A stretch of 64,000 bases of DNA from Streptomyces sp. Je 1-369. Its GTDB lineage: Bacteria > Actinomycetota > Actinomycetes > Streptomycetales > Streptomycetaceae. The translations under genes and the position numbers were made by a program. The first letter of the stretch is position 1, and the number at the start of each line of letters is the position of its first letter. The stretch is taken from NCBI RefSeq assembly GCF_026810505.1, contig NZ_CP101750.1:1393448-1457447 (forward strand), written 5' to 3'. Below the pieces are notes generated by a model that saw only the letters and a list, made by a program, of their open reading frames with translations, made no database searches and had not been told where the DNA came from. Of this stretch, positions 1 to 11,236 are shown piece after piece.

Positions 1-180
1 GCCTTCGTCACCGCGTTCCTGCACTCCCTCTTCGAGGGGCGTCCGGTGGAGGAGTGCGTGCTCGCCGGGTCCGTCTCGGGGGCCTTCGCCTGCGGCAGCG
101 CGGGCACCCACACCGAGTTCATCGACCTGCCGGGGCTGCGTGGCGCGTGTGCGCGCGCGAGCGCCGCCGCCACCGGCTGA
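1..180 (+). CDS. PfkB-family sugar kinase, C-terminal fragment
   Basis: Frame 1 is open from the window edge to a TGA at 178-180, giving the last 59 residues of a protein. It begins AFVTAFLHSLFEG, which is what normally follows the DTTGAGD signature of ribokinase/PfkB kinases, and then has the usual Ala/Gly/Ser-rich closing helix (LAGSVSGAFACGSAGTHTEF). The signature itself lies outside the window, so the family call rests on this pattern. The gene ends only 15 nt before the glycosyltransferase start and probably begins or continues the same operon. By context it may phosphorylate a sugar or cyclitol; in acarbose producers the acarbose 7-kinase AcbK is of this family. Identity of the substrate is inference. 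Confidence 0.65.
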   Translation, partial: AFVTAFLHSLFEGRPVEECVLAGSVSGAFACGSAGTHTEFIDLPGLRGACARASAAATG

Positions 181-195
181 GGGAGCTGCGCGCAC

Positions 196-3100
196 GTGCA
201 CATCATCAACTTCTCGTACGAGTGCGGCGGTTTCGACAACCGTCTGATGCGGGGCGGGCTCTCGCCGCTGGTGTGGAACCTGTCGCGGGAGTACGCCGCG
301 CGCGGCCACCGCGTCTCCGTGATCACCCCGGCCCACGGCCACCTCGACCGGCTCCGGGAGACGTTCCCGATCGAGGAGCTCGACTACCGCGCGGACCACG
401 TGGTGCCGCTCGTCCTCGACCCGGCGGTGTGGCCCGGCCACCCGGCGGAGGTGGCCGTCGAGCTGACCACGCGCGCGTACCGGCTCCGCCTGGACGGCGT
501 GGACGTCTACTTCCTGTCCAACGCCCACCTGGACCTGCTGCCCGACCGGCTCTACCCGCCGCCCGGCCTTGAGGGCCGGGACCTCGCGCACTTCAAGCCG
601 CTGGTGTTCCAGGTGGAGGGGGTGCGCTTCATCAGGTCCGGTCTGCCGCTCGGCCCCGCCCCGGGGACGTCCGGCCCCGAGCCCGCGATCGTGCACGGCT
701 TCGAGCCGTACTACCACTACCTGCTGCCGCCCGTGCTCGCCGCCGATCCGCGGTTCCGCACCGTGAGCACGGTCGCGGCCAACGCGCCCGTCGGACAGCA
801 GGTCCACCGCCCGCAGGTGGAGCGCCTCCTCGCGCTCCTCGGCGCCGGTGCGGGCATCGACCTGGACGCGCTCGACGGCCCCCCGCCACCGGAGGACTCT
901 CCGGTGGCGACCATCGCGCGGGCCCTCGCCGGCACGCGCATGCACCAGGAGCGCAGGCCCGACCACGTCGGCGTGTTCCCCCTGGTCGCCGCGCACGCGG
1001 ACCTCGTCGACTTCGTCTCACCCGGCCAGCGCGCCTACTGCAGCACCTTCGAAGGCACCCCCTTCGAAGCGCTCTTCGCCACGCTTCCGGTGGCCCGCGA
1101 ACTCCGCACCCATCCGCACAAGCTCCTCATGGGCGGCTGCGGGGTGGCCGAAAGCTGGCTCGCCCGGGACCCTGCCGGGGTGGACCGCGCCGCCGTCCTG
1201 AGCGGGCTCGGCCTCGACCCGGCGCGCCCCGTCTTCTTCCACGCGGCGCGCTACGCCGTGCACCACAAGGGCCAGCTGGAGCTGATGCGCGCGGTGGAGG
1301 AGGTCCTCGCCACCGACCCGGACATCAGCTTCGTCATCCGCTGCGCGACCGGCGGAGGCGGCGAGACCTCCCCCGCCGGGCCCGCCGCCGCGAACGCCTA
1401 CTTCCAGGGCATCGCCGACCGTTACCCGGGCCAGGTCCACCTGGACTGGCGCCTCGCCGACGAGGACACCCTCTTCGAACAGGCCGCCTGCGCCGACTTC
1501 TGCGTCAACCCCTCCAAGTACGAACTGGACGGCTTCCTCATCGCCCAGGCCGAGGCGATGGCGTGCGGGGCGGTGCCGATCGCCACGGATCAGCGGGTCA
1601 CCGGCCACTTCGGGCACGCGCGACCGCTCACGGACCCGACGGCGACGGGTTTCTCCGTACGCGGCTCGTTCCGCGACGACGACCCCGTACTCGCCCGCGA
1701 ACTGGCCGACCGAATACGTGAGGCCGCGGCGGTCTTCCGGGGCGACCCGGACACGTACGACCGCCTGTCGGCCAACGCCCGCCGCGTGGCCCGCCGGTTC
1801 ACCTGGCCCGGCAGCGCGGAACTGCGCCTCACCGCGTTCGACACGCTGCTGCGCGGCGAACGGCAGCCCTTCCCCGCCGAGGACGCCATCGCGTGGGGCT
1901 GGTTCGACGCGCTGGACGACGCGGACTTCGCACGACACGGGGAGCTGATCGCGGGGGCGGCGGCCGAAAGGGGCGACGCGGCCGCGTACGCGCGGTGCGC
2001 TCCGTTGGACGGGCTCGCGGTGGAGCGGCTCTTCGAAGCGGCTTATGCCCGCGCGGACTTCGCGCGGGGCGCGGAACTCGCGGAGACGGCGGGGCGCGAC
2101 GACTGGACGGCACGGCTGGCGGAGCGGTGCCGGGTGACGCCGAGTCCTGAGGGAGACGGTCGCGGGTGGCGGGTCGAGTACGTCCATGCCGGGGCGGAGC
2201 GCGTGGAGGTGGTGGTGGAGTCGACGGGGGTGGCGGGGCCCGGGGCGGTGGGGTCCGGGGCGTCACGGTCCGAGGCGTCACGGTCCGAGGCGGTGCGGGA
2301 GTCCGTCGCCGAAGCGGTCGCCTCGGATGAGGCCGTGCCCGTCGGGAGCGGGGTCGGGTTCGTGGCTCTGCGGGCCGCGGGCGACGGCACGTTCCACGGG
2401 GTTCTCGACCGGCTGCCCGTGGGGCGGGAGCTCGTCGTCATGGTGACTTTGCGCTCGGGGCGGGTCGCCTGGGACGCCGTCCCGTTCACTGGGGCGCCGC
2501 CGCCCTACCGGGTCGTCGCCACCGACCTCGACGGCACCCTGCTCCGCGGCGACCTGTCCGTGTCCGACCGCACCCGTCGCGCCCTCGCCCTGGCCACCGG
2601 GGCGGGCGCGCACCACCTCGTCGTCACCGGGCGGCCCGCCGCCGCCTGCCGGGAGTTCCTCACCGCGCTCGGCTACCGGGGCATCGCGGTGTGCGGGCAG
2701 GGCGCGCAGCTGTACGACGCGGGCGCGGACCGGCTCCTCGACTCCGCACGGCTCGACCTCGACCTGGCCAGGTCGGTGGTCGACCGGGTCGAGGACGCGC
2801 TCGGCACGCTGGAGCTGGGGGTCGTCACGGCGCCGCCCGAAAGCCGGTTCAAGGTGACGCCGCGCTTCGGTGAACGGGTCCGGCACGGCTGGGACGTCAC
2901 GGCCGACCGCGCACAGCTGTGGTCCGCCCCCATCGACAAGCTGGTCCTGCACCACCCGGACGTACCGGAGGACGAACTGGCGGGCGTCACCGAGAAGTTG
3001 TGCGGCGACGACGTGAGCGTCGTGCACTCCGTGAAGGGCATGGTGGAGGTGCTGCCCCTGGGAACCACCAAGGGCGCGGGGGTCGCACGGGCGGCCCGGC

Positions 3101-3399
3101 TCCTCGGCTTCACGGCCGCGGACACCATCGCGTTCGGCGACATGCCCAACGACATTCCCCTCCTCGCCTGGGCGGCCCACGGCGTGGCCGTCGCCAACGC
3201 CCATCCGGAGCTGCGCGCCATGGCCGACGAGGTCGCGCCGAGCAACGACGAGGACGGCGTCGCGGTCGTCCTGGAACGGCTCTTCACCCCGACACGGAAC
3301 CCGGCACCGGCACCAGCACCGGCACCGGCATCGGCACGGAACCCCGCACCGGCACCGACCCCGACGCCGAAGACACCGAGACCGGGGGCACCCGCATGA
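196..3399 (+). CDS. GT5-like glycosyltransferase fused to HAD (Cof-type) phosphatase
   Basis: A 1067-residue two-domain protein starting at GTG 196. Residues 1 to about 560 form a GT-B glycosyltransferase resembling the glycogen/starch synthase group: an N-terminal loop GGLSPLVWNLSREYAARGHRV near residue 20, and a C-terminal nucleotide-binding segment VNPSKYELDGFLIAQAEAM with its paired acidic residues. A linker rich in Glu, Val and Ser repeats follows. Residues from about 772 form a HAD phosphatase: nucleophile motif DLDGT at 777-781 and acidic motif GDMPND at 981-986, typical of Cof/trehalose-phosphatase-like enzymes. The last 35 residues are Pro/Ala repeats. The arrangement resembles fused sugar-phosphate synthase/phosphatases: make a phosphorylated glycoside, then dephosphorylate it. 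In acarbose synthesis AcbS is also a GT5-like (pseudo)glycosyltransferase. Substrates here are unknown. The stop overlaps the malQ start. Confidence 0.8.
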   Translation: MHIINFSYECGGFDNRLMRGGLSPLVWNLSREYAARGHRVSVITPAHGHLDRLRETFPIEELDYRADHVVPLVLDPAVWPGHPAEVAVELTTRAYRLRLDGVDVYFLSNAHLDLLPDRLYPPPGLEGRDLAHFKPLVFQVEGVRFIRSGLPLGPAPGTSGPEPAIVHGFEPYYHYLLPPVLAADPRFRTVSTVAANAPVGQQVHRPQVERLLALLGAGAGIDLDALDGPPPPEDSPVATIARALAGTRMHQERRPDHVGVFPLVAAHADLVDFVSPGQRAYCSTFEGTPFEALFATLPVARELRTHPHKLLMGGCGVAESWLARDPAGVDRAAVLSGLGLDPARPVFFHAARYAVHHKGQLELMRAVEEVLATDPDISFVIRCATGGGGETSPAGPAAANAYFQGIADRYPGQVHLDWRLADEDTLFEQAACADFCVNPSKYELDGFLIAQAEAMACGAVPIATDQRVTGHFGHARPLTDPTATGFSVRGSFRDDDPVLARELADRIREAAAVFRGDPDTYDRLSANARRVARRFTWPGSAELRLTAFDTLLRGERQPFPAEDAIAWGWFDALDDADFARHGELIAGAAAERGDAAAYARCAPLDGLAVERLFEAAYARADFARGAELAETAGRDDWTARLAERCRVTPSPEGDGRGWRVEYVHAGAERVEVVVESTGVAGPGAVGSGASRSEASRSEAVRESVAEAVASDEAVPVGSGVGFVALRAAGDGTFHGVLDRLPVGRELVVMVTLRSGRVAWDAVPFTGAPPPYRVVATDLDGTLLRGDLSVSDRTRRALALATGAGAHHLVVTGRPAAACREFLTALGYRGIAVCGQGAQLYDAGADRLLDSARLDLDLARSVVDRVEDALGTLELGVVTAPPESRFKVTPRFGERVRHGWDVTADRAQLWSAPIDKLVLHHPDVPEDELAGVTEKLCGDDVSVVHSVKGMVEVLPLGTTKGAGVARAARLLGFTAADTIAFGDMPNDIPLLAWAAHGVAVANAHPELRAMADEVAPSNDEDGVAVVLERLFTPTRNPAPAPAPAPASARNPAPAPTPTPKTPRPGAPA

Positions 3400-5522
3400 C
3401 CGACGCACTCACCGCCCTCGCCCACGCCCACGGAGTGGCCACCGCCTACACCACCGACCGCGGCCACCGCGTCGACGTCGCCCCGGACACGCTGGTCGCC
3501 GTCCTCGCGGCGTGCGGCGTGGACGCGTCGACAGAGGCGGCGGCACGCGTGGCCCTGGAGACCCACCGACGCGGGCAGGCAGAGAGACTGCTGCCCCCGT
3601 GTGTGGTGCTGCGCGTCCCCGGAGACGGCACCCCGAACAGCACCCGCCCCCTCCCCGCCCACCTCACGCAGCACACCGAAGCACACGTGCGGTTGGAGTC
3701 CGGCGGCACGAGCGGCCTCTCCCCCACCCTCCCACCCGGCCACCACATCCTCCACGTCCGAACCCCCGGCGGACAGCGGGCGCACGCACCCCTCCTTGCC
3801 GTGCCCGACCGCCTGCCCACCCCCGCGGGCCGCACCTGGGGCTTCCTGATCCAGCTCTACTCCGTCCTCTCCCACCGCTCCTGGGGCATGGGCGACCTCG
3901 GCGACCTGGCGGAGCTCGCCTCCTGGTCGGGGCGGGAGCTCGGCGCGGGGTTCGTCCAGCTCGGGCCGTTGCACGCGGTGGAGCCGGGGCCGCTGCCCGA
4001 CCCGTCCCCGTACCGGCCGAGTTCACGGCGTTTCGCCGACCCCATGCACGTACGCGTGGAGGCGGTGCCGGAGTACGCCTACCTCGACCCGGCGGCGCGC
4101 CCCGCCGTGGACGACCTCGTCGCCCGCGCGCGACGGCTGAACGTCGCCGTTCTGGACGGGAGTTCACTCATCGACCGCGAGGCCGTGCGCGAGCTCAAGC
4201 AGCGCGCGCTGCGAGCCGTGCGCGACGTACCACTGCTGCCAGGGCGGGCCGCGGCCTTCGCCGCGTTCGTCGAGCGCGAGGGGCAGGGCCTCACCGACTA
4301 CGCCACGTGGTGCGCGCTCGCCGACGTGCACGGCCGGGCGTGGCGGTCCTGGCCCGCCGAGCTGCGCGACCCCCGCTCCCCCGCCGTGGCGCGGGCCCGC
4401 AACGAGCTCTCCGCGGCCGTCGACCACCACCGGTGGCTCGCCTGGATCACCGACGAGCAGCTGGCGTCCGCACAGGCCGCGGCGGTCGGCTCGGGCATGC
4501 CGGTCGGACTCGTCCACGACCTGGCGGTCGGCGTCGCGCCGGAGGGGGCCGACGCCTGGGCCCTGCAACGCTGCCTGGCCGCGGGCATGAGCGTGGGCGC
4601 GCCGCCGGACGACTTCAACCGGCGTGGCCAGGACTGGGGCCAGCCGCCGTGGCGGCCGGACGCCCTCGCGGCGGAGGGCTACCGGCCCTTCGCCGAGCTG
4701 CTCCGCTCCGGGCTGCGGCACGCCGGGGCCCTGCGCGTGGATCACGTCATGGGGCTCTCGCGGCTGTGGTGGGTACCGGAGGGGCGGCCGCCGACGGAGG
4801 GCACATACGTCAGGTACGACCGGGACGCGATGCTCGGCGTCCTCGCCCTGGAGGCGTACCGCGCGGGCGCCGCGGTGATCGGCGAGGATCTCGGCACCGT
4901 CGAGGACGGCATGCGCGAGGAGCTCGCTGGGCGCGGCATGCTCGGCACGTCCGTGCAGCGCTTCGAGTACCTGGGCGGCTCCGCGGGCCGGCACGGTCCG
5001 CTGCCGCCCGACCAGTGGCGGGCGAACTGTCTGGCCACGCTCACGACCCACGACCTGCCGACGACGGCGGCCTGGCTCTCCGGCGAGCACGTGGACCTGC
5101 GGGCGCGGCTCGGGCTGCTGACCCGGCCGGAGGCCGAGGAGAAGGCGGCGGCAGCGGCCGAGCGCGACGGCTGGCTCGCCGAGCTGACCCGGCTGGGCCT
5201 GCTGCCCGATCCGGACGGCGAGGTCGCCGCGCTGCACCGGTTCCTGCGGCGCACTCCGGCCCGGATGCTCGGCGTCTGGCTGCCGGACGCGACGGGCGAC
5301 CGGCGACCGCAGAACCTGCCGGGCACGGCCACGGTGCACCCCAACTGGCGGCTGCCGGTGGCGGACGCACGGGGACGCCCGGTCCCGCTGGAGGAGCTTC
5401 CCGCGTCCACGCTGGTCCGGATCCTGGCGGACGTCTTCGCGCCCGGCACCGCGGACGTCCTCGCGCACGACACCACTGAGAACAACACCAAGGAGAGTCA
5501 TGGCAGGCCAGGTTCTTGCTGA
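3396..5522 (+). CDS. malQ: 4-alpha-glucanotransferase (amylomaltase)
   Basis: 708 residues from ATG 3396, which overlaps the previous stop as ATGA. GH77 family: it disproportionates maltooligosaccharides by transferring alpha-1,4-glucan segments. The N-terminal 145 residues are the small actinobacterial MalQ extension. The catalytic barrel follows from GFLIQLYSV, with the nucleophile Asp in ALRVDHVMGL, the acid/base Glu in VIGEDLGTVEDG, and the transition-state Asp in TTHDLPTTAAWL, so all three catalytic carboxylates are present. The last codons overlap the cyclase start by 23 nt, showing translational coupling. A MalQ inside a cyclitol operon recalls acbQ in acarbose clusters. It may supply or extend maltooligosaccharide acceptors, or it may simply serve glycogen metabolism. 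Confidence 0.9.
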   Translation: MTDALTALAHAHGVATAYTTDRGHRVDVAPDTLVAVLAACGVDASTEAAARVALETHRRGQAERLLPPCVVLRVPGDGTPNSTRPLPAHLTQHTEAHVRLESGGTSGLSPTLPPGHHILHVRTPGGQRAHAPLLAVPDRLPTPAGRTWGFLIQLYSVLSHRSWGMGDLGDLAELASWSGRELGAGFVQLGPLHAVEPGPLPDPSPYRPSSRRFADPMHVRVEAVPEYAYLDPAARPAVDDLVARARRLNVAVLDGSSLIDREAVRELKQRALRAVRDVPLLPGRAAAFAAFVEREGQGLTDYATWCALADVHGRAWRSWPAELRDPRSPAVARARNELSAAVDHHRWLAWITDEQLASAQAAAVGSGMPVGLVHDLAVGVAPEGADAWALQRCLAAGMSVGAPPDDFNRRGQDWGQPPWRPDALAAEGYRPFAELLRSGLRHAGALRVDHVMGLSRLWWVPEGRPPTEGTYVRYDRDAMLGVLALEAYRAGAAVIGEDLGTVEDGMREELAGRGMLGTSVQRFEYLGGSAGRHGPLPPDQWRANCLATLTTHDLPTTAAWLSGEHVDLRARLGLLTRPEAEEKAAAAAERDGWLAELTRLGLLPDPDGEVAALHRFLRRTPARMLGVWLPDATGDRRPQNLPGTATVHPNWRLPVADARGRPVPLEELPASTLVRILADVFAPGTADVLAHDTTENNTKESHGRPGSC

Positions 5523-6696
5523 GGCGGAGACCACAGGTGTCCGTGAGGACGCCGGGGGCTTCGACCTGCTCGCACCGGACGGCACCGGCTACCGCGTCGA
5601 CGTCACGGGCGGGGTCTTCCACCCGGACAACCCGCTGCTCGCGGAGTACGTGGCGGGCCGCCGCGTGGTGGCCTTCATCGGACCCACCGTGGACCGAATC
5701 TACGGCAGGCAGCTCCGCCATTACCTCACCACCCGCCTGGAGCCCGGCAGTTGGAGCGTGCACACCATCGCCACCGGCGAGCACAACAAGTCGCTGAACT
5801 CGGTGGAATCGGTCTGCGCGACCGCCAAGGCGGCGGGCCTGGACCGGCACGGGGTGATGCTCGCGGTGGGCGGCGGCATCGTCGCGGACATCGTCGGCTT
5901 CGCCGCGTCCATGTACGCACGCGGCATCCGCTACATCAAGGTCAACACCAGCCTGGTGGGGCAGGTCGACGTCGGCGTCGGCGTCAAGACCGGCGTCAAC
6001 GCCCTGCACAGCAAGAACATGTTCGGCGCCTACCACCCCGCCCACGCCTCCCTCAACGACCCGGCGCTCCTTGACACCCTGCCGGCGCGCGAGATCCGCT
6101 GCGGCCTCGCCGAGATCGTGAAGATGGCGGTGATCCTCGACGGCGACTTGTTCAGGACGCTGGAGCGGCACCCGGACGCGTTCCGCCGCGGCCCGTCCGG
6201 CGCGGCGGTCCCGGGCGACGACGTGGAGACGTACATCGTCCGCACCTCCATGCGGCTCATGATGGAGGAGCTCTGCCCGAACCTGCGCGAGCACGAGCTC
6301 GCCCGGCTCGTCGACTTCGGCCACACGTTCAGCCCGGTGATCGAGACGGCGGGCGGCCACCGGCTGGCCCACGGCGAGGCGGTCGCCGTCGACATGGCGC
6401 TGTCCGCGCACGTCGCGCGGCTGCTCGGGCTCACCGACGAGGACACGTGCGAGCGGATCGTGGCCCTGCTCGAGGGGATCGGCCTGCCCGTGTACGACCC
6501 GGCCACCTGCACGCCCGAGCTGATGACGCAGGCTCTGCGGGCGTCGTGGCAGCGCCGGGGCCGCAAGCTGCACCTGGTCGTGCCGACCGCGCTGGGCAAG
6601 GCGGCCTTCGTCGACGAGCTGGAGCACCTCCCGACGGAGACGCTGCGGGCGGCTCTGGACGCGCTGGCGGACCGGGCGGTGCGGCGCGATGGCTGA
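5500..6696 (+). CDS. Sedoheptulose 7-phosphate cyclase, 2-epi-5-epi-valiolone synthase type
   Basis: 398 residues, ATG 5500. Dehydroquinate-synthase superfamily: NAD motif AVGGGIVADIVGFAASMYARG near residue 122, then VGVGVKTGVN and the Zn ligands Glu in GLAEIVKMAV, His in DFGHTFSPVIE and His in LAHGEAVAVDM. The sequence FGHTFSP replaces the GHTFGHA of true 3-dehydroquinate synthases, a mark of the sugar-phosphate cyclases that use sedoheptulose 7-phosphate. The best fit is 2-epi-5-epi-valiolone synthase (as ValA or AcbC), which makes the C7 cyclitol core of validamycin and acarbose. 2-epi-valiolone synthase or a gadusol-type enzyme cannot be excluded by eye. Neighbouring kinases, reductase and glycosyltransferase fit a C7-cyclitol pathway. 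Overlaps malQ by 23 nt and the cupin gene by 8 nt. Confidence 0.85.
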   Translation: MAGQVLAEAETTGVREDAGGFDLLAPDGTGYRVDVTGGVFHPDNPLLAEYVAGRRVVAFIGPTVDRIYGRQLRHYLTTRLEPGSWSVHTIATGEHNKSLNSVESVCATAKAAGLDRHGVMLAVGGGIVADIVGFAASMYARGIRYIKVNTSLVGQVDVGVGVKTGVNALHSKNMFGAYHPAHASLNDPALLDTLPAREIRCGLAEIVKMAVILDGDLFRTLERHPDAFRRGPSGAAVPGDDVETYIVRTSMRLMMEELCPNLREHELARLVDFGHTFSPVIETAGGHRLAHGEAVAVDMALSAHVARLLGLTDEDTCERIVALLEGIGLPVYDPATCTPELMTQALRASWQRRGRKLHLVVPTALGKAAFVDELEHLPTETLRAALDALADRAVRRDG

Positions 6697-7108
6697 GCAC
6701 ACGCCGCCCACCACGGCGGGAACCGCGGGAGTGCAGCAACGCACGGTCAACGTAAAGGATCTGCTGACCGCCAAGGAGCACGACCACGGCGGCCTCGGCA
6801 CGATCCTCGCGCACCGCGTCTTCGCCCGCGCGGAGGGCGCAGCCGGTGCGGACTTCATCGATCTGGCGGTCCTGCCGCCCGGTACGTCCATCGGCAGGCA
6901 CCGGCACGGGGCGGACCGTGAGACGTACGTCGTGCTCGCCGGGAGCGGGCTGATGTTCCGCGACGGGGCGGAGTTCCGGGTGGGAACGGGGGACGTCGTC
7001 GTCAATCGCCCCTACGGCGAGCACGGCCTGTACAACGACTCCGAGGACGCCACGGATCTGCACCTGCTGGTCTTCGAGGAGGCAGTGCGTGACGACGAAG
7101 GAAGCTGA
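6689..7108 (+). CDS. Cupin-domain protein
   Basis: 139 residues, ATG 6689, overlapping the cyclase stop by 8 nt and the ROK kinase start by 20 nt, so certainly part of the operon. A single double-stranded beta-helix: metal motif 1 is GRHRHGADRETYVV (His, His, Glu) with the closing His in YGEHGLYN. The first 45 residues are not conserved-looking. Small cupins of this type bind a divalent metal and may act as isomerases, dioxygenases or sensors. Placement directly after the cyclase suggests action on a cyclitol intermediate (for example epimerisation or dehydration), but nothing in the sequence fixes the reaction. Confidence 0.8.
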   Translation: MAEHTPPTTAGTAGVQQRTVNVKDLLTAKEHDHGGLGTILAHRVFARAEGAAGADFIDLAVLPPGTSIGRHRHGADRETYVVLAGSGLMFRDGAEFRVGTGDVVVNRPYGEHGLYNDSEDATDLHLLVFEEAVRDDEGS

Positions 7109-8156
7109 CCGGCCGCCCGAGTCCTTCACCGTGCTCGACGTGGGCGGGACCACGCTGCGGATCGGGAGTTACGCCCCGGCCACCGGCCGCCTCTCACGGG
7201 TGCGCCGCGTCCCGGTCGAGGGCAAGGTGCTGCACCCGGACGCGTCCGTGCCGGAGCTGCAGGAGCGGGTGGTGGAGCAGATCGTGCGCGAGGTCGACCG
7301 GCACGGCGCCGGTACGGGTGGGGTGCCGCATGCGGTCGGTATCGCCTTCGCGGGGCCGGTGACGGCGGATGGCCTGGTCGTCGCGGCGCCCACAGTGTGG
7401 GGGCTGCGCGGCGCACCGCTGCCCCTCGGCGCGCTGTTGGGCGAGCGGATCGGGGTGCCGGTCGCCGTCGTCAACGATCTCACGGCGGCGGCCTGGCGGT
7501 ACGCGGCCACGGAGCCGGAGCCGTTCTGTCTGCTCACCGTCAGCTCGGGCATCGGCAACAAGGTCTTCCGCGGCGGTGATGTGCTCGTCGACCCCGCGGG
7601 GCACGGCGGCGAACTGGGTCACTGGGTCTGCGACCCCTCGCCCGACGCGCCGCTGTGCGACTGCGGCGGCCGTGGCCACCTGGGTGCCGTCGCCTCCGGG
7701 CGCGGGGTGCTCGCGGCGGCCCGGCGCGCGGCGGTGGCGGACCCGGCCGAATTCGCCGCGTCCCGTCTCGCCGCCCTCTGCGGGGGCGGTCACCCGGACG
7801 CGATCGGCAATCCGGCGTTGGCCAAGGCGATCGCGGAGGGCGACCCGTTCGCCACGGGGGTGCTCCGCGGCACGCTCGTACCGCTCGCCCAAGCCGTCTC
7901 GGCGGTCTTCACGTCGATCGGGGTGTGCCGCTTCATCCTGATGGGCGGTTTCGCTCTGGCGGTCGGGGAGCGGTACCGGGCGCTGCTGGTGGAGGAGCTG
8001 GTCCGCCAGGGCTGCTTCGGCCTCGCCGCGGACCACGTGGACGCTCTGATATCCCTCGGTGCCCCCGACGACGACCACGGCCTGCTCGGCGCGGGCCGCC
8101 TTCTGACGACCAGGACGACCAGGACGATCAGCACGGCCGGTGGGGCGACCGCGTAA
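7089..8156 (+). CDS. ROK-family sugar/cyclitol kinase
   Basis: 355 residues from GTG 7089, inside the end of the cupin gene. N-terminal ATP site TVLDVGGTTLRIG, catalytic Asp in VVNDLTAAAW, and the ROK zinc region GGELGH followed by CDCGGRGHLGAV. The usual third zinc Cys (CxCGxxGC) is His here, which could still coordinate zinc. No helix-turn-helix is present, so it is an enzyme rather than a ROK repressor. The glucokinase-like kinases AcbM and ValC that phosphorylate 2-epi-5-epi-valiolone or valienone at O-7 belong to the same broad group. A cyclitol 7-kinase role is therefore plausible, and plain glucokinase is the alternative. Followed after 37 nt by the reductase gene. Confidence 0.8.
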   Translation: MTTKEADRPPESFTVLDVGGTTLRIGSYAPATGRLSRVRRVPVEGKVLHPDASVPELQERVVEQIVREVDRHGAGTGGVPHAVGIAFAGPVTADGLVVAAPTVWGLRGAPLPLGALLGERIGVPVAVVNDLTAAAWRYAATEPEPFCLLTVSSGIGNKVFRGGDVLVDPAGHGGELGHWVCDPSPDAPLCDCGGRGHLGAVASGRGVLAAARRAAVADPAEFAASRLAALCGGGHPDAIGNPALAKAIAEGDPFATGVLRGTLVPLAQAVSAVFTSIGVCRFILMGGFALAVGERYRALLVEELVRQGCFGLAADHVDALISLGAPDDDHGLLGAGRLLTTRTTRTISTAGGATA

Positions 8157-8193
8157 CGCCGTCCCTCCCCGCCCCTCACAGACAGGCCCCCGC

Positions 8194-9144
8194 ATGACCC
8201 GCACGACCACCCCCCGCACGCTCATCGTCGGCAGCGGATTCGTCGGTACCGGTATCGCCCGGCGCCTCGCGCGTGCCGGGGACGACGTCACCCTCGTCTC
8301 GCGCGGGCGCCCGGCCACGCCACCCGAGGAATACGGCGCCCGGTGGTCCGCGCTGGACGCCACCGACGCCGAGGCCTGCACCCGGCTCCTGGCCCGGCTG
8401 CGGCCGGAGCGGATCGTCCTGGTGCACGGCCCTTCCGACGTCACCTGGTGCGAGGAACATCCGGAGGAGGCGGACGCGGCGCACGCCGCCGTCACCGCCA
8501 ACTTCGCCGCGTACGACGCCGCTTCGCGCACCGTCATGATCTCCACGGACAACGTCTTCGACGGCCACGCGTGGCACAACACGGAGCACACCCCCGTCTC
8601 CCCCGCCAACGCCTACGGCCGCGCCAAACGGCACGCCGAGCGCCGGCTCCTCGGCGGTTCCGCGCGGGCGGTCTGCCTCCGGGTCAGCCTCGTGTACGGC
8701 CATGAGCCCGCCGACGCCGGCAAGTGGCTGAATTTCTTCGCCGCGTGCGCCCACCGGCTGGCCGACGGCGCGTCCGTCGAGGCACCCGACGACCACTGGA
8801 CCACTCCCGTCCACGTGGACGACGTGGCCGCCGTCGTGGCCGCACTCCTCGCCGCCCCGGACCCTCTTCCGCCGGTCCTGCACCTGGGCGGCCCCGACCG
8901 GGTCACCCGCGCCGAATGGGCCGGGGTGATCGCCGAGGCGCTCGGCGCCCCGGCCGGTCTGGTCGTGCCGGTACCGAAGGCCCGCGGCCGCTACGCCTCG
9001 CGGCCCGAGAACGCCTGCCTCGTCTCCGAGTTGCTGACTGGGCTGCCCGCCACGCGCGCCGTCACCGTACGCGGGGTACGGGACGGGGCACGCGACCTGG
9101 CCGCCGCGTTTCCGCTACGCGCAGGAGACGTCCTCGAGCCGTAG
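8194..9144 (+). CDS. RmlD-like NAD(P)-dependent sugar reductase/epimerase (extended SDR)
   Basis: 316 residues from ATG 8194; the open frame extends upstream but ATG 8194 precedes the Rossmann strand directly. The nucleotide motif is TLIVGSGFVGTGIARRL; the substrate motif STDNVFDG and catalytic YGRAK are characteristic of the dTDP-4-dehydrorhamnose reductase branch of extended short-chain dehydrogenases. As the last gene of the operon it could reduce or epimerise a cyclitol ketone or a nucleotide sugar. Its final 30 nt overlap the end of the oppositely oriented STAS gene, which closes the operon. Confidence 0.8.
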   Translation: MTRTTTPRTLIVGSGFVGTGIARRLARAGDDVTLVSRGRPATPPEEYGARWSALDATDAEACTRLLARLRPERIVLVHGPSDVTWCEEHPEEADAAHAAVTANFAAYDAASRTVMISTDNVFDGHAWHNTEHTPVSPANAYGRAKRHAERRLLGGSARAVCLRVSLVYGHEPADAGKWLNFFAACAHRLADGASVEAPDDHWTTPVHVDDVAAVVAALLAAPDPLPPVLHLGGPDRVTRAEWAGVIAEALGAPAGLVVPVPKARGRYASRPENACLVSELLTGLPATRAVTVRGVRDGARDLAAAFPLRAGDVLEP

Positions 9145-9477
9145 CGTCTCGATCCGGTCCCAGCCGCGCGCCACGATCCGGTCGTGCAGGTTCAGGTCGG
9201 CGGTGGCGCGCACCACCAGGCACTGCGGCGGCTGCAGATGGACCGCGAAGGCGATGAGGGTCTCCAGGCCGCTGTTGGCCAGGTAGCGGACGCCGGTCAG
9301 GTCGATGAGGATCTCGTCGGCTCGCGCCCGGCCGGGGTCGCCCGCCTGGGTCTGGTCGGTCAGGGCGAGGGCCAGGGGCCCGCGATGGCTGCTCACGACC
9401 TCGCCGGACAGTCGTACGCCGGGGCTGTGGGTGGTGGGCATGATGAGCAGGAGGTCGTCCGCGAAGTAGTCGCGCAT
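9115..9477 (-). CDS. STAS-domain protein (anti-sigma factor antagonist-like)
   Basis: 120 residues starting at ATG 9477 (MRDYFADDLLLIMP). A STAS fold: an N-terminal strand, then DEILIDLTGVRYLANSGLETLIAFAVHL, where the Ser in LANSGLE sits at the position phosphorylated in SpoIIAA/RsbV antagonists. Such proteins bind anti-sigma factors or act as single-domain signalling switches. No anti-sigma kinase or sigma factor is adjacent, so the partner must be elsewhere. Its 3' end overlaps the preceding operon in antiparallel orientation by 30 nt. A longer open frame reaches upstream to 9561 but lacks a better start. Confidence 0.75.
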   Translation of the reverse strand: MRDYFADDLLLIMPTTHSPGVRLSGEVVSSHRGPLALALTDQTQAGDPGRARADEILIDLTGVRYLANSGLETLIAFAVHLQPPQCLVVRATADLNLHDRIVARGWDRIETLRLEDVSCA

Positions 9478-9745
9478 GGCAGATCCGATGCCTTGGTGCG
9501 CCGTGAAAAGGGACGGGCAGCGGTGGACGTGTACATCACATCCACCGTGGGGGTCCTTCACGCGGTGCTACGAGGCGGAAGCACTGTTCCGCTGAGAGCA
9601 GCCGCTGGCGTAAGGGCACACTCCGGGCCCGATAGGTAGCCGGAAGGTCATCGCAGCGGTAACAACAACAGACCGTGGGCTGTTACTCAGCGTACTCCCT
9701 CAACTCCGCCACCGATAGGGACCTTTCCGGGCAAGCGGCGACGAA
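9478..9745. other. Intergenic region between STAS gene and amylase terminator
   Basis: No convincing coding potential in either direction; the open frames here are short and without family resemblance. The minus strand must hold the promoter of the STAS gene. AT-richer patches (around 9590-9720) are unusual for this genome and would suit promoters, but I cannot assign hexamers with confidence. Confidence 0.4.
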
Positions 9746-9805: not shown

Positions 9806-11236
9806 TCAGCTGCTGGCGCCCGAGCAGCTCTCCGCGCCGACGTGCACGGCGAGCGCGCTCTTCGCGGCGACGGTCGCGGCCAGTCGGCCCTCGCTGTCGA
9901 CGGTGACGGGCTTGCCGGACTGGACGTCGCAGTACTCGCCCGCGGGCAGCGACGTCTTCAGGTTCTCCTTCACCTCGCCGTCCCCCGCGTTGATGGCGAG
10001 GAACGCCTTGTCACCGCGGCCGAAGGCGATGGCGCCGCCCCCGTTGTCCCACCAGTCGGTGACCTCCGCGTCGCCCGCGGTGTTGCGGAAGGCGACCATG
10101 CTCGCGATCTGCGGCCGCGCGTGCTGGCACACCCACGCGTCGCTGGAGCAGTCCGCCTTGCCGCCTGCGGGCGGACCGTCGTCCTTGCTGGTGAAGGCGT
10201 ACCCGGAGTGGACGTCCGGCGAGCCGTACGGGAAGGCGAGGGCGAAGACGTGCGCCAGGGTGTACGGGGCGCCCTGCTTGTAGGTGAGGACGCTGCCCTG
10301 GCGCTCGGTGTCGTGGTTGGCGACGAAGACACCCGCGTTCTTCGAGGGCTGCTTGCCGTCGGCGATGTTCTTCAGCCCGGCGAGGCTGCCGCCTTCGAAG
10401 GCGCCCTTCAGGGCGTACGCGTAGTTGAACTCCTGCACGTCGCCGGTGCCGATGTACTCACCGGGCTGGACCTCCTCACCGGGCCCGGGCAGCGTCTCCT
10501 GCTTCCAGTACACGTCCGGGTCGGTGAGCTGCGACTTGATCGCCTTCAGGTCGTCCTCGGGCATGTGCTTGGCCGCGTCGATGCGGAAACCGTCGACGCC
10601 GAGTGAGAGGAGGTCGTTCATGTATCCGGCGATGGTCTTGCGGACGTGCTCCTCTCCGGTGTCCAGGTCGGCGAGGCCGCCGAGTTCGCAGTTCTGGCTC
10701 TCCTCGCGCTTGGTGTAGTCCTGGATCTCCTTCTTGCAGTTGTCCATGTCGGCGTCCCCGTAGGTGCCGGGGTAGTCGTACTTGGTGAAGCGCGTGCCGC
10801 CGGAGCCGGTGCCCTGCGCGTTGGTCATGTGGTTGATGACCGTGTCGGCGACGACCTTGACTCCCGCGTCGTGACAGGTGTCCACCATGCTCTTGAACGA
10901 CGCGCGGTCGCCGAGCCGGGAGGCGATCTTGTAGCTGACCGGCTGGTAGGCGGTCCACCACGAGGGGCCGTCCAGACGCTCCTGCGGGGGCGACGTCTGG
11001 ACGTACCCGTAACCGGCCGGGCCGAGCGTGTCCGTGCACGCCTTGGCCACGGAGTCGAAGTTCCACTCGAACATCACCGCTGTGACGTCCTTGCCGGCGT
11101 CCGCGGCGCGGCTCTTCCCGGCGGGCGCGGCCTGGCCGGGCTGCTGGGCTCCGACGGCGAGACTGCCCGCCGCTCCGGCAACCAGTGCGGCGCTCATGAC
11201 GGCGATCCTGCGGGGTTTCGATATACGTCCGTGCAT
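9806..11236 (-). CDS. Secreted alpha-amylase (GH13)
   Basis: 476 residues, ATG 11236. The N-terminus ([21 protein letters not shown]...) is a Sec signal peptide with likely cleavage after the AQQPGQA region. The (beta/alpha)8 barrel contains [11 protein letters not shown], nucleophile D220 in [12 protein letters not shown], acid/base E247 in VYWKQE and D309 in VANHDTE, as in Streptomyces amylases such as Aml. The protein ends after the all-beta domain C, so it lacks the CBM20 starch-binding domain found in roughly 560-residue homologues. It hydrolyses starch extracellularly to maltooligosaccharides. The upstream palindrome at 11331 fits maltose-responsive control. Its closeness to the pseudo-oligosaccharide-like operon recalls the acarbose-resistant amylases of acarbose clusters; resistance is not visible from sequence. 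Confidence 0.93.

What the first reader, a model, noticed from the sequence alone, without database searches (positions are those of the whole stretch)
1..9144. Candidate C7-cyclitol / pseudo-oligosaccharide operon
Seven coupled genes encode PfkB kinase, glycosyltransferase-HAD, MalQ, an EEVS-type sedoheptulose 7-phosphate cyclase, cupin, ROK kinase and RmlD-like reductase. Seen: cyclase motif FGHTFSP, complete Zn ligands, start-stop overlaps throughout. Known: acarbose clusters combine AcbC (cyclase), AcbM (ROK-like 7-kinase), AcbK (PfkB-type kinase), AcbQ (MalQ) and AcbS (GT5-like). Inference: this operon makes a phosphorylated cyclitol joined to glucose or maltooligosaccharide. No aminotransferase or dTDP-sugar gene is present here, so the product may be a nitrogen-free O-linked cyclitol glycoside unlike acarbose or validamycin.
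Basis: partly seen in the sequence, partly recalled or inferred. Interest (0 to 1): 0.75.

Follow-up and report, generated by a model that had tools for sequence, protein, structure and literature searches.

The report
Acarbose-type amylase-inhibitor gene cluster
These genes are the right-hand half of a known kind of Streptomyces gene cluster that makes acarbose-like sugar mimics, which block starch-digesting enzymes; the nitrogen genes that seemed to be missing lie just outside the window.

Summary
The operon is real: pfkB end, glycosyltransferase-HAD fusion, malQ, sedoheptulose-phosphate-type cyclase, cupin, ROK kinase and RmlD-like gene, on one strand and closely packed. Its interpretation is half right. 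The window edge cuts the cluster. Upstream in the same genome lie a second glycosyltransferase, a GlgC-like nucleotidyltransferase, an AcbU-like kinase, an ABC exporter, a class-III aminotransferase, RmlA, RmlB and a close relative of GacH, the acarbose-binding protein. Gene order B-A-V-W-X-Y-U-S-R-K-I-Q-C-J-M-O equals the published acarviostatin (sct) cluster of S. coelicoflavus. In an S. coelicoflavus genome the nine genes S to O allow exactly the printed Sct protein lengths (9 of 9) and are 63-80% identical to ours. The cupin is 78% identical to S. glaucescens GacJ. The cyclase separates from dehydroquinate synthases. The product is therefore most likely a nitrogen-containing acarviosyl pseudo-oligosaccharide (acarbose/acarviostatin/trestatin class), not a nitrogen-free glycoside: a new member of a known kind. 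Still open, and already noted in print for sct, is how cupin J and RmlD-like O stand in for AcbO, AcbL and AcbN on the way to valienol 7-phosphate.

The parts
1..180 (+). K: end of pfkB-family kinase gene (AcbK/SctK-like); whole gene runs from -746
   Evidence: PfkB PF00294 E 3.9e-26 for the whole protein
196..3399 (+). I: glycosyltransferase fused to a HAD phosphatase domain (SctI-like, 1067 aa); HAD part about 2515-3273
   Evidence: motifs DLDGTL and GDMPND; SctI counterpart in L027
3396..5522 (+). Q: GH77 4-alpha-glucanotransferase (AcbQ/SctQ-like)
   Evidence: PF02446 E 4e-106
5500..6696 (+). C: sedoheptulose-7-phosphate-cyclase-type enzyme (AcbC/SctC-like)
6689..7108 (+). J: one-domain metal-type cupin (GacJ/SctJ-like)
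   Evidence: PF07883; 78% identical to S. glaucescens 'GacJ protein'; H71, H73, E78, H112 invariant in 43 sequences; model pLDDT 91.9
7089..8156 (+). M: ROK-family kinase (SctM-like cyclitol 7-kinase)
   Evidence: PF00480 E 3.9e-22; L027 counterpart
8194..9144 (+). O: RmlD-like short-chain dehydrogenase (SctO-like); other possible start GTG 8140
   Evidence: PF04321 E 2.1e-33; L027 counterpart; model pLDDT 94.3
9806..11236 (-). secreted-type alpha-amylase flanking the cluster
   Evidence: PF00128 and PF02806

Best explanation
Bases 1-9144 are the K(end)-I-Q-C-J-M-O part of an acarbose/acarviostatin-type (gac/sct) cluster whose other half lies upstream of base 1. Proposed working, by analogy with enzymes shown in Actinoplanes: C cyclises sedoheptulose 7-phosphate to 2-epi-5-epi-valiolone. 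M (7-kinase), J (cupin) and O (RmlD-like) turn it into valienol 7-phosphate. U phosphorylates C1, the HAD domain of I removes the 7-phosphate, and R makes GDP-valienol. In parallel A, B and V make dTDP-4-amino-4,6-dideoxyglucose, which the GT domain of I joins to maltose. S makes the C-N bond to valienol, giving an acarviosyl pseudo-oligosaccharide. W-X-Y export it, Q and the amylases modify it, H-F-G import it and K rephosphorylates it. Shown here: gene content, order, homology and open frames. Inferred: each enzymatic step and the product class. Whether the product is acarbose, acarviostatins or trestatins is not decided.
For: Upstream aminotransferase, RmlA, RmlB, ABC exporter, kinase, second GT, GlgC-like gene. 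Importer binding protein matches GacH at 632 bits, next entry 316. Gene order equals the sct table of PMC8234114 (passages), and all 15 gac core letters of PMC13240717 have a counterpart here (for the list). In L027 (S. coelicoflavus) one start option of each of nine genes gives the printed Sct length, 9 of 9, at 63-80% identity to ours. Cupin 78% identical to GacJ. Cyclase: 238 bits to 4p53, 173 to 5tpr, 172 or less to dehydroquinate synthases; DHQS rows split off at 100/99 in the tree. Amylases on both flanks, as reported for such clusters.
Against: No enzyme activity or metabolite was seen. J and O have no counterpart in the proven Actinoplanes route. No named Acb, Gac or tre sequences except GacJ and GacH were at hand, so S and I are assigned by order, size and the L027 comparison, not by a tree with AcbS and AcbI. 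The cluster could be silent.
Confidence: 0.93

Rival explanations
1. One reading: the operon makes a nitrogen-free O-linked cyclitol glycoside, without aminotransferase.
For: No such gene inside bases 1-9144. PMC9200736 mentions some pseudo-oligosaccharide clusters that lack an aminotransferase gene.
Against: Aminotransferase, RmlA and RmlB are in the same cluster upstream; the aminotransferase is in 32 of 33 searched genomes with a related locus. AcbS in vitro needed the amino group (PMC9200736).
Confidence: 0.02
2. Same cluster class, but specifically a trestatin maker (terminal trehalose) rather than acarbose or acarviostatins.
For: Trestatin clusters belong to the same class (PMC12498427 and PMC13240717 passages).
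Against: Nothing specific for or against: no tre sequence was at hand, and the closest fully matched order is sct.
Confidence: 0.2
3. J and O are not the valienol 7-phosphate enzymes; the VOC protein, SDR and zinc-type dehydrogenase beside the genome's second cyclase (about 5.09 Mb) supply the missing steps in trans.
For: That locus exists with those families. ValD, a VOC protein, is a cyclitol epimerase (reference title only), and AcbL was assayed with Zn and NADPH (passages).
Against: J directly follows C in 39 of 39 loci. J and O share 37 contig lengths over 10 kb. O is found in 8 of 8 genomes of the re-ordered type, 5 of the 8 matches with one TGA inside the matched stretch. I did not look for the second locus in those genomes.
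Confidence: 0.07

Closest known systems
sct cluster (acarviostatins), Streptomyces coelicoflavus ZG0656
   Same: Gene order B to O; GT-HAD fusion I; J and O in place of AcbO/L/N; GFH importer, regulators and amylases on the flank (table in PMC8234114)
   Different: Another strain; proteins S to O 63-80% identical to those of S. coelicoflavus NBRC 15399. I saw no counterpart of T or Scim but did not search for them. ZG0656 sequence itself not compared.
gac cluster (acarbose), Streptomyces glaucescens GLA.O
   Same: Same core gene letters (PMC13240717); J 78% identical to GacJ; binding protein close to GacH
   Different: Gene order of gac was not seen by me; only J and H compared by sequence
acb cluster (acarbose), Actinoplanes sp. 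SE50/110
   Same: Counterparts of A B V W X Y U S R K I Q C M through the sct table
   Different: acb uses AcbO, AcbL and AcbN and a separate phosphatase AcbJ; here J and O, and a HAD domain fused to I
tre clusters (trestatins), S. dimorphogenes and S. ansochromogenes
   Same: Same product family and cluster class (passages)
   Different: Terminal alpha,alpha-1,1 linkage in the product; sequences not compared
ValA (4p53), validamycin cyclase
   Same: Nearest solved structure of the cyclase by sequence, 238 bits; the PDB name is 'Cyclase', ValA is recalled
   Different: Separate branch from the sct/gac-type cyclases

Membership tests
gac/sct-type acarbose-acarviostatin cluster | Core set A V W X Y U S R K I Q C J M O (list from PMC13240717) | tested here: met
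   15 of 15 have a counterpart by family and place
gac/sct-type acarbose-acarviostatin cluster | Gene order and protein sizes of the sct table | tested here: met
   Order B to O equal; nine genes in L027 allow the printed lengths, 9 of 9
gac/sct-type acarbose-acarviostatin cluster | Sequence relation to named gac proteins | tested here: met
   GacJ 78% over 84% of the query; GacH 632 bits; other Gac proteins not compared
gac/sct-type acarbose-acarviostatin cluster | Makes an acarviosyl compound | not testable with these tools
   Needs culture and LC-MS
Sedoheptulose 7-phosphate cyclase (EEVS type) | Groups apart from dehydroquinate synthases and with the known C7 cyclase | tested here: met
   Apart from four DHQS rows at 100/99; 4p53 and 5tpr on the same side; its own group of 36 at 85/98; long branches flagged
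Sedoheptulose 7-phosphate cyclase (EEVS type) | Uses sedoheptulose 7-phosphate and gives 2-epi-5-epi-valiolone | not testable with these tools
   Needs purified enzyme
acb-type route to valienol 7-phosphate | AcbO, AcbL and AcbN homologues in the cluster | not tested
   No Acb sequences at hand; PMC8234114 states that sct lacks them
tre (trestatin) cluster | Sequence relation to tre genes or trehalose-ended product | not tested
   No tre sequence at hand
Metal cupin (J) | HxH...E...H metal ligands and one-domain beta-barrel | tested here: met
   Four residues invariant in 43 sequences; model and fold matches

The most novel reading that the evidence does not exclude
Streptomyces acarviosyl clusters make valienol 7-phosphate with a recruited RmlC/RmlD-like pair. 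The metal cupin J would bind the C1 ketone of the (2-epi-)5-epi-valiolone intermediate and enolise it both ways: towards C2 (2-epimerisation) and towards C6 (loss of the C5 hydroxyl, giving valienone), so that one small enzyme does the work of both AcbO and AcbL. O would then reduce the C1 ketone in place of AcbN. This differs from the printed sct proposal (J epimerase, O dehydratase), which names no enzyme for the C1 reduction in the passages I saw. The HAD domain fused to I would replace AcbJ.
Probability: 0.3. Interest if true: 0.45.

Novelty: new member of a known kind. Interest (0 to 1): 0.22.

Why it matters
It turns an apparently new nitrogen-free glycoside operon into an ordinary acarbose-type cluster. 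The useful remainder is a testable gap: the proven Actinoplanes route uses three enzymes (AcbO, AcbL, AcbN) between the phosphorylated cyclitol and valienol 7-phosphate, while this Streptomyces type offers two unrelated proteins (cupin J, RmlD-like O). Settling it would complete the second natural route to a clinically used inhibitor class and could give a compact enzyme set for engineering.

Tried and rejected
Nitrogen-free product: rejected after reading upstream. Cyclase as dehydroquinate synthase: rejected; the genome has a separate AroB-like gene beside a chorismate-synthase-like gene (L007; names by eye) that falls with the DHQS rows. GT-HAD as AcbS: set aside for I by size and place.

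Sampling: 394 class-level genomes searched with the S protein gave only the own genome at E 1e-60, so no Actinoplanes-type reference came from it. In the genus, 14 of 246 searched genomes (own included) match at 1e-100; for three of these 14 the only match is 44-46% identical and may not be S.

Literature: no held paper has both 'epi-valiolone' and 'cupin'. A search on gac gene names gave one unrelated paper. A search on GacJ/SctJ/SctO/gac cluster/sct-cluster gave 184 papers, 15 listed, of which PMC8234114 alone concerns this topic by its title. Guo 2012, Rockser and Wehmeier 2009 and Tanoeyadi 2023 were not seen and are known only through citing papers. PMC9200736: parts 1-4 of 8 read. PMC13240717: passages and first part of Results. 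PMC12498427, PMC7081202, PMC3364876 and PMC8234114: passages.

Structure searches: J resembles many small cupins, among them Mn cupins, a DMSP lyase, phosphomannose isomerases, KdgF and BacB; O resembles MAT2B, RmlD and NDP-sugar epimerases and dehydratases. Neither picks out a reaction.

Full report
What was checked. The window is G000:C1:1393448-1457447, + strand, of an 8.82-Mb single-contig genome. Overlaps are 4-23 bp for I/Q, Q/C, C/J and J/M; K-I (15 bp) and M-O (37 bp from the ATG) are gaps.

What lies upstream. I fetched 1373501-1393447 and 1355001-1374500. In window coordinates, on the + strand: class-III aminotransferase (-9462 to -8158), ABC ATPase (from -8161), two ABC-2 permeases (from -7142 and -6321), an APH-type kinase (from -5512; weak Pfam match, 25 bits), a second GT5/GT4-like glycosyltransferase (-3968 to -1872), a GlgC-like nucleotidyltransferase (-1939 to -743; its start is uncertain, it overlaps S by 68 bp) and the PfkB kinase (-746 to 180). 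Further up: RmlA-like (-10778 to -9711) and RmlB-like (-11779 to -10775) on the - strand, a LacI regulator on the + strand (from -12834), and on the - strand a solute-binding protein (-14477 to -13206) and two importer permeases. Beyond these lie a GH13 gene of the alpha-glucosidase kind, a second LacI (by eye), an alpha-amylase and a pullulanase-type protein. The binding protein matches the PDB entries named 'Acarbose/maltose binding protein GacH' at 632 bits; the next entry has 316.

Spread. A scan of genome contigs with the cyclase gave 39 loci, 38 titled Streptomyces and one Kitasatospora. In 39 of 39 the cupin directly follows the cyclase; in 31 malQ directly precedes it; 8 have another order, in which C-J is followed by the aminotransferase (7 whole, in L046 a partial match only). 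Three of the 39 (L009-L011) are copies in one assembly. The aminotransferase is found at E 1e-120 or better in 32 of 33 genomes searched; the exception is the genome of L046. O is found in 8 of 8 genomes of the re-ordered type; in 5 of the 8 the matched stretch holds one TGA, which I did not look into. Among contigs over 10 kb in the listed relatives of J (81 lengths) and O (101 lengths, list cut at 120 of 270 proteins), 37 lengths are shared, Allostreptomyces and Nocardiopsis rows among them; a shared length is only a proxy for the same contig. In the genus, 14 of 246 searched genomes, own included, have a match to S at 1e-100, three of them only at 44-46% identity.

The cyclase. Against solved structures it scores 238 bits to 4p53, 173 to 5tpr and 172 or less to dehydroquinate synthases (that 4p53 is ValA and 5tpr a desmethyl-4-deoxygadusol synthase is recalled, the PDB names are 'Cyclase' and '3-dehydroquinate synthase'). 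In a tree of 44 rows four dehydroquinate synthases (three solved, one from this genome) split from the rest at 100/99; 4p53, 5tpr and two second cyclases form one group (99/97) and 36 sct/gac-type cyclases another (85/98). Long branches are flagged, so finer placement is unsure.

Mechanism. From PMC9200736 (parts 1-4 of 8) the Actinoplanes steps are: AcbU makes valienol 1,7-diphosphate, AcbJ removes the 7-phosphate, AcbR makes GDP-valienol, AcbI joins 4-amino-4,6-dideoxyglucose to maltose, AcbS makes the C-N bond. From PMC7081202 (passages): AcbO epimerises, AcbL dehydrates, AcbN reduces. Mapping these onto this cluster is inference through the sct table. Among the cluster genes that I annotated the only phosphatase-type domain is the Cof-type HAD part of I (DLDGTL and GDMPND motifs), so I give it the 7-phosphatase step. 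PMC8234114 says that sct lacks AcbO, AcbL and AcbN and proposes J as epimerase and O as dehydratase. By general chemistry both 2-epimerisation and loss of the C5 hydroxyl start with enolisation of the C1 ketone, so a metal cupin could do both and leave the ketone reduction to the RmlD-like O: this is my bolder reading. Four metal-type residues of J (H71, H73, E78, H112) are invariant in 43 sequences. Its model (pLDDT 91.9) is a one-domain cupin; matches include a predicted oxalate decarboxylase, Mn cupins, a DMSP lyase, phosphomannose isomerases and BacB. O (pLDDT 94.3) matches MAT2B, RmlD and NDP-sugar epimerases and dehydratases. Shared folds do not show function, and these results do not tell my reading from the printed one.

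Verdict. Observation confirmed with small corrections; interpretation partly supported; the product class is known; the novelty is that of a new member. The open point is the J/O replacement, already pointed out in print for sct without proof.

Noticed in passing
L006:1877-8667 (G000:C1 about 5.088-5.095 Mb), - strand: A second cyclase of the EEVS side of the tree (with 4p53; VDYGHTFSP) sits with a two-domain VOC protein, an SDR, a zinc-type dehydrogenase, a double cupin and a KAS III-like gene: a separate, unrelated-looking C7-cyclitol locus with no aminotransferase or glycosyltransferase seen in the genes called in the 17 kb fetched.
   Followed up: partly
window 9806-11236 (-) and L049:17733-19169 (-): The genome's two close alpha-amylase paralogues (66% identical; other matches in the genome are weak) flank the cluster. 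Before the NHD motif they read VFVANHD and VFVTNHD; PMC13240717 reports a D-to-T change in amylases of such clusters and links it to inhibitor resistance (that D is the usual residue at just this place is recalled).
   Followed up: partly
window 9115-9561 (-): A small ORF that converges on and overlaps the end of O; no Pfam match, looks like a STAS/anti-sigma-factor-antagonist protein by eye.
   Followed up: no
L046 (Streptomyces cupreus PSKA01): Odd locus: cyclase and cupin, only a partial aminotransferase match, no E 1e-120 aminotransferase in the genome, and a second cyclase of the other branch about 6 kb away; possibly a decayed or different cluster.
   Followed up: no
L009, L010, L011 (Streptomyces alfalfae XY25): The same stretch with identical match coordinates on three contigs of one assembly, probably assembly redundancy.
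   Followed up: no
G429: A genome whose two S/I-type glycosyltransferase matches lie on different contigs, the weaker one in a 712-aa open frame, too short for a fused HAD part; perhaps an unfused variant.
   Followed up: no
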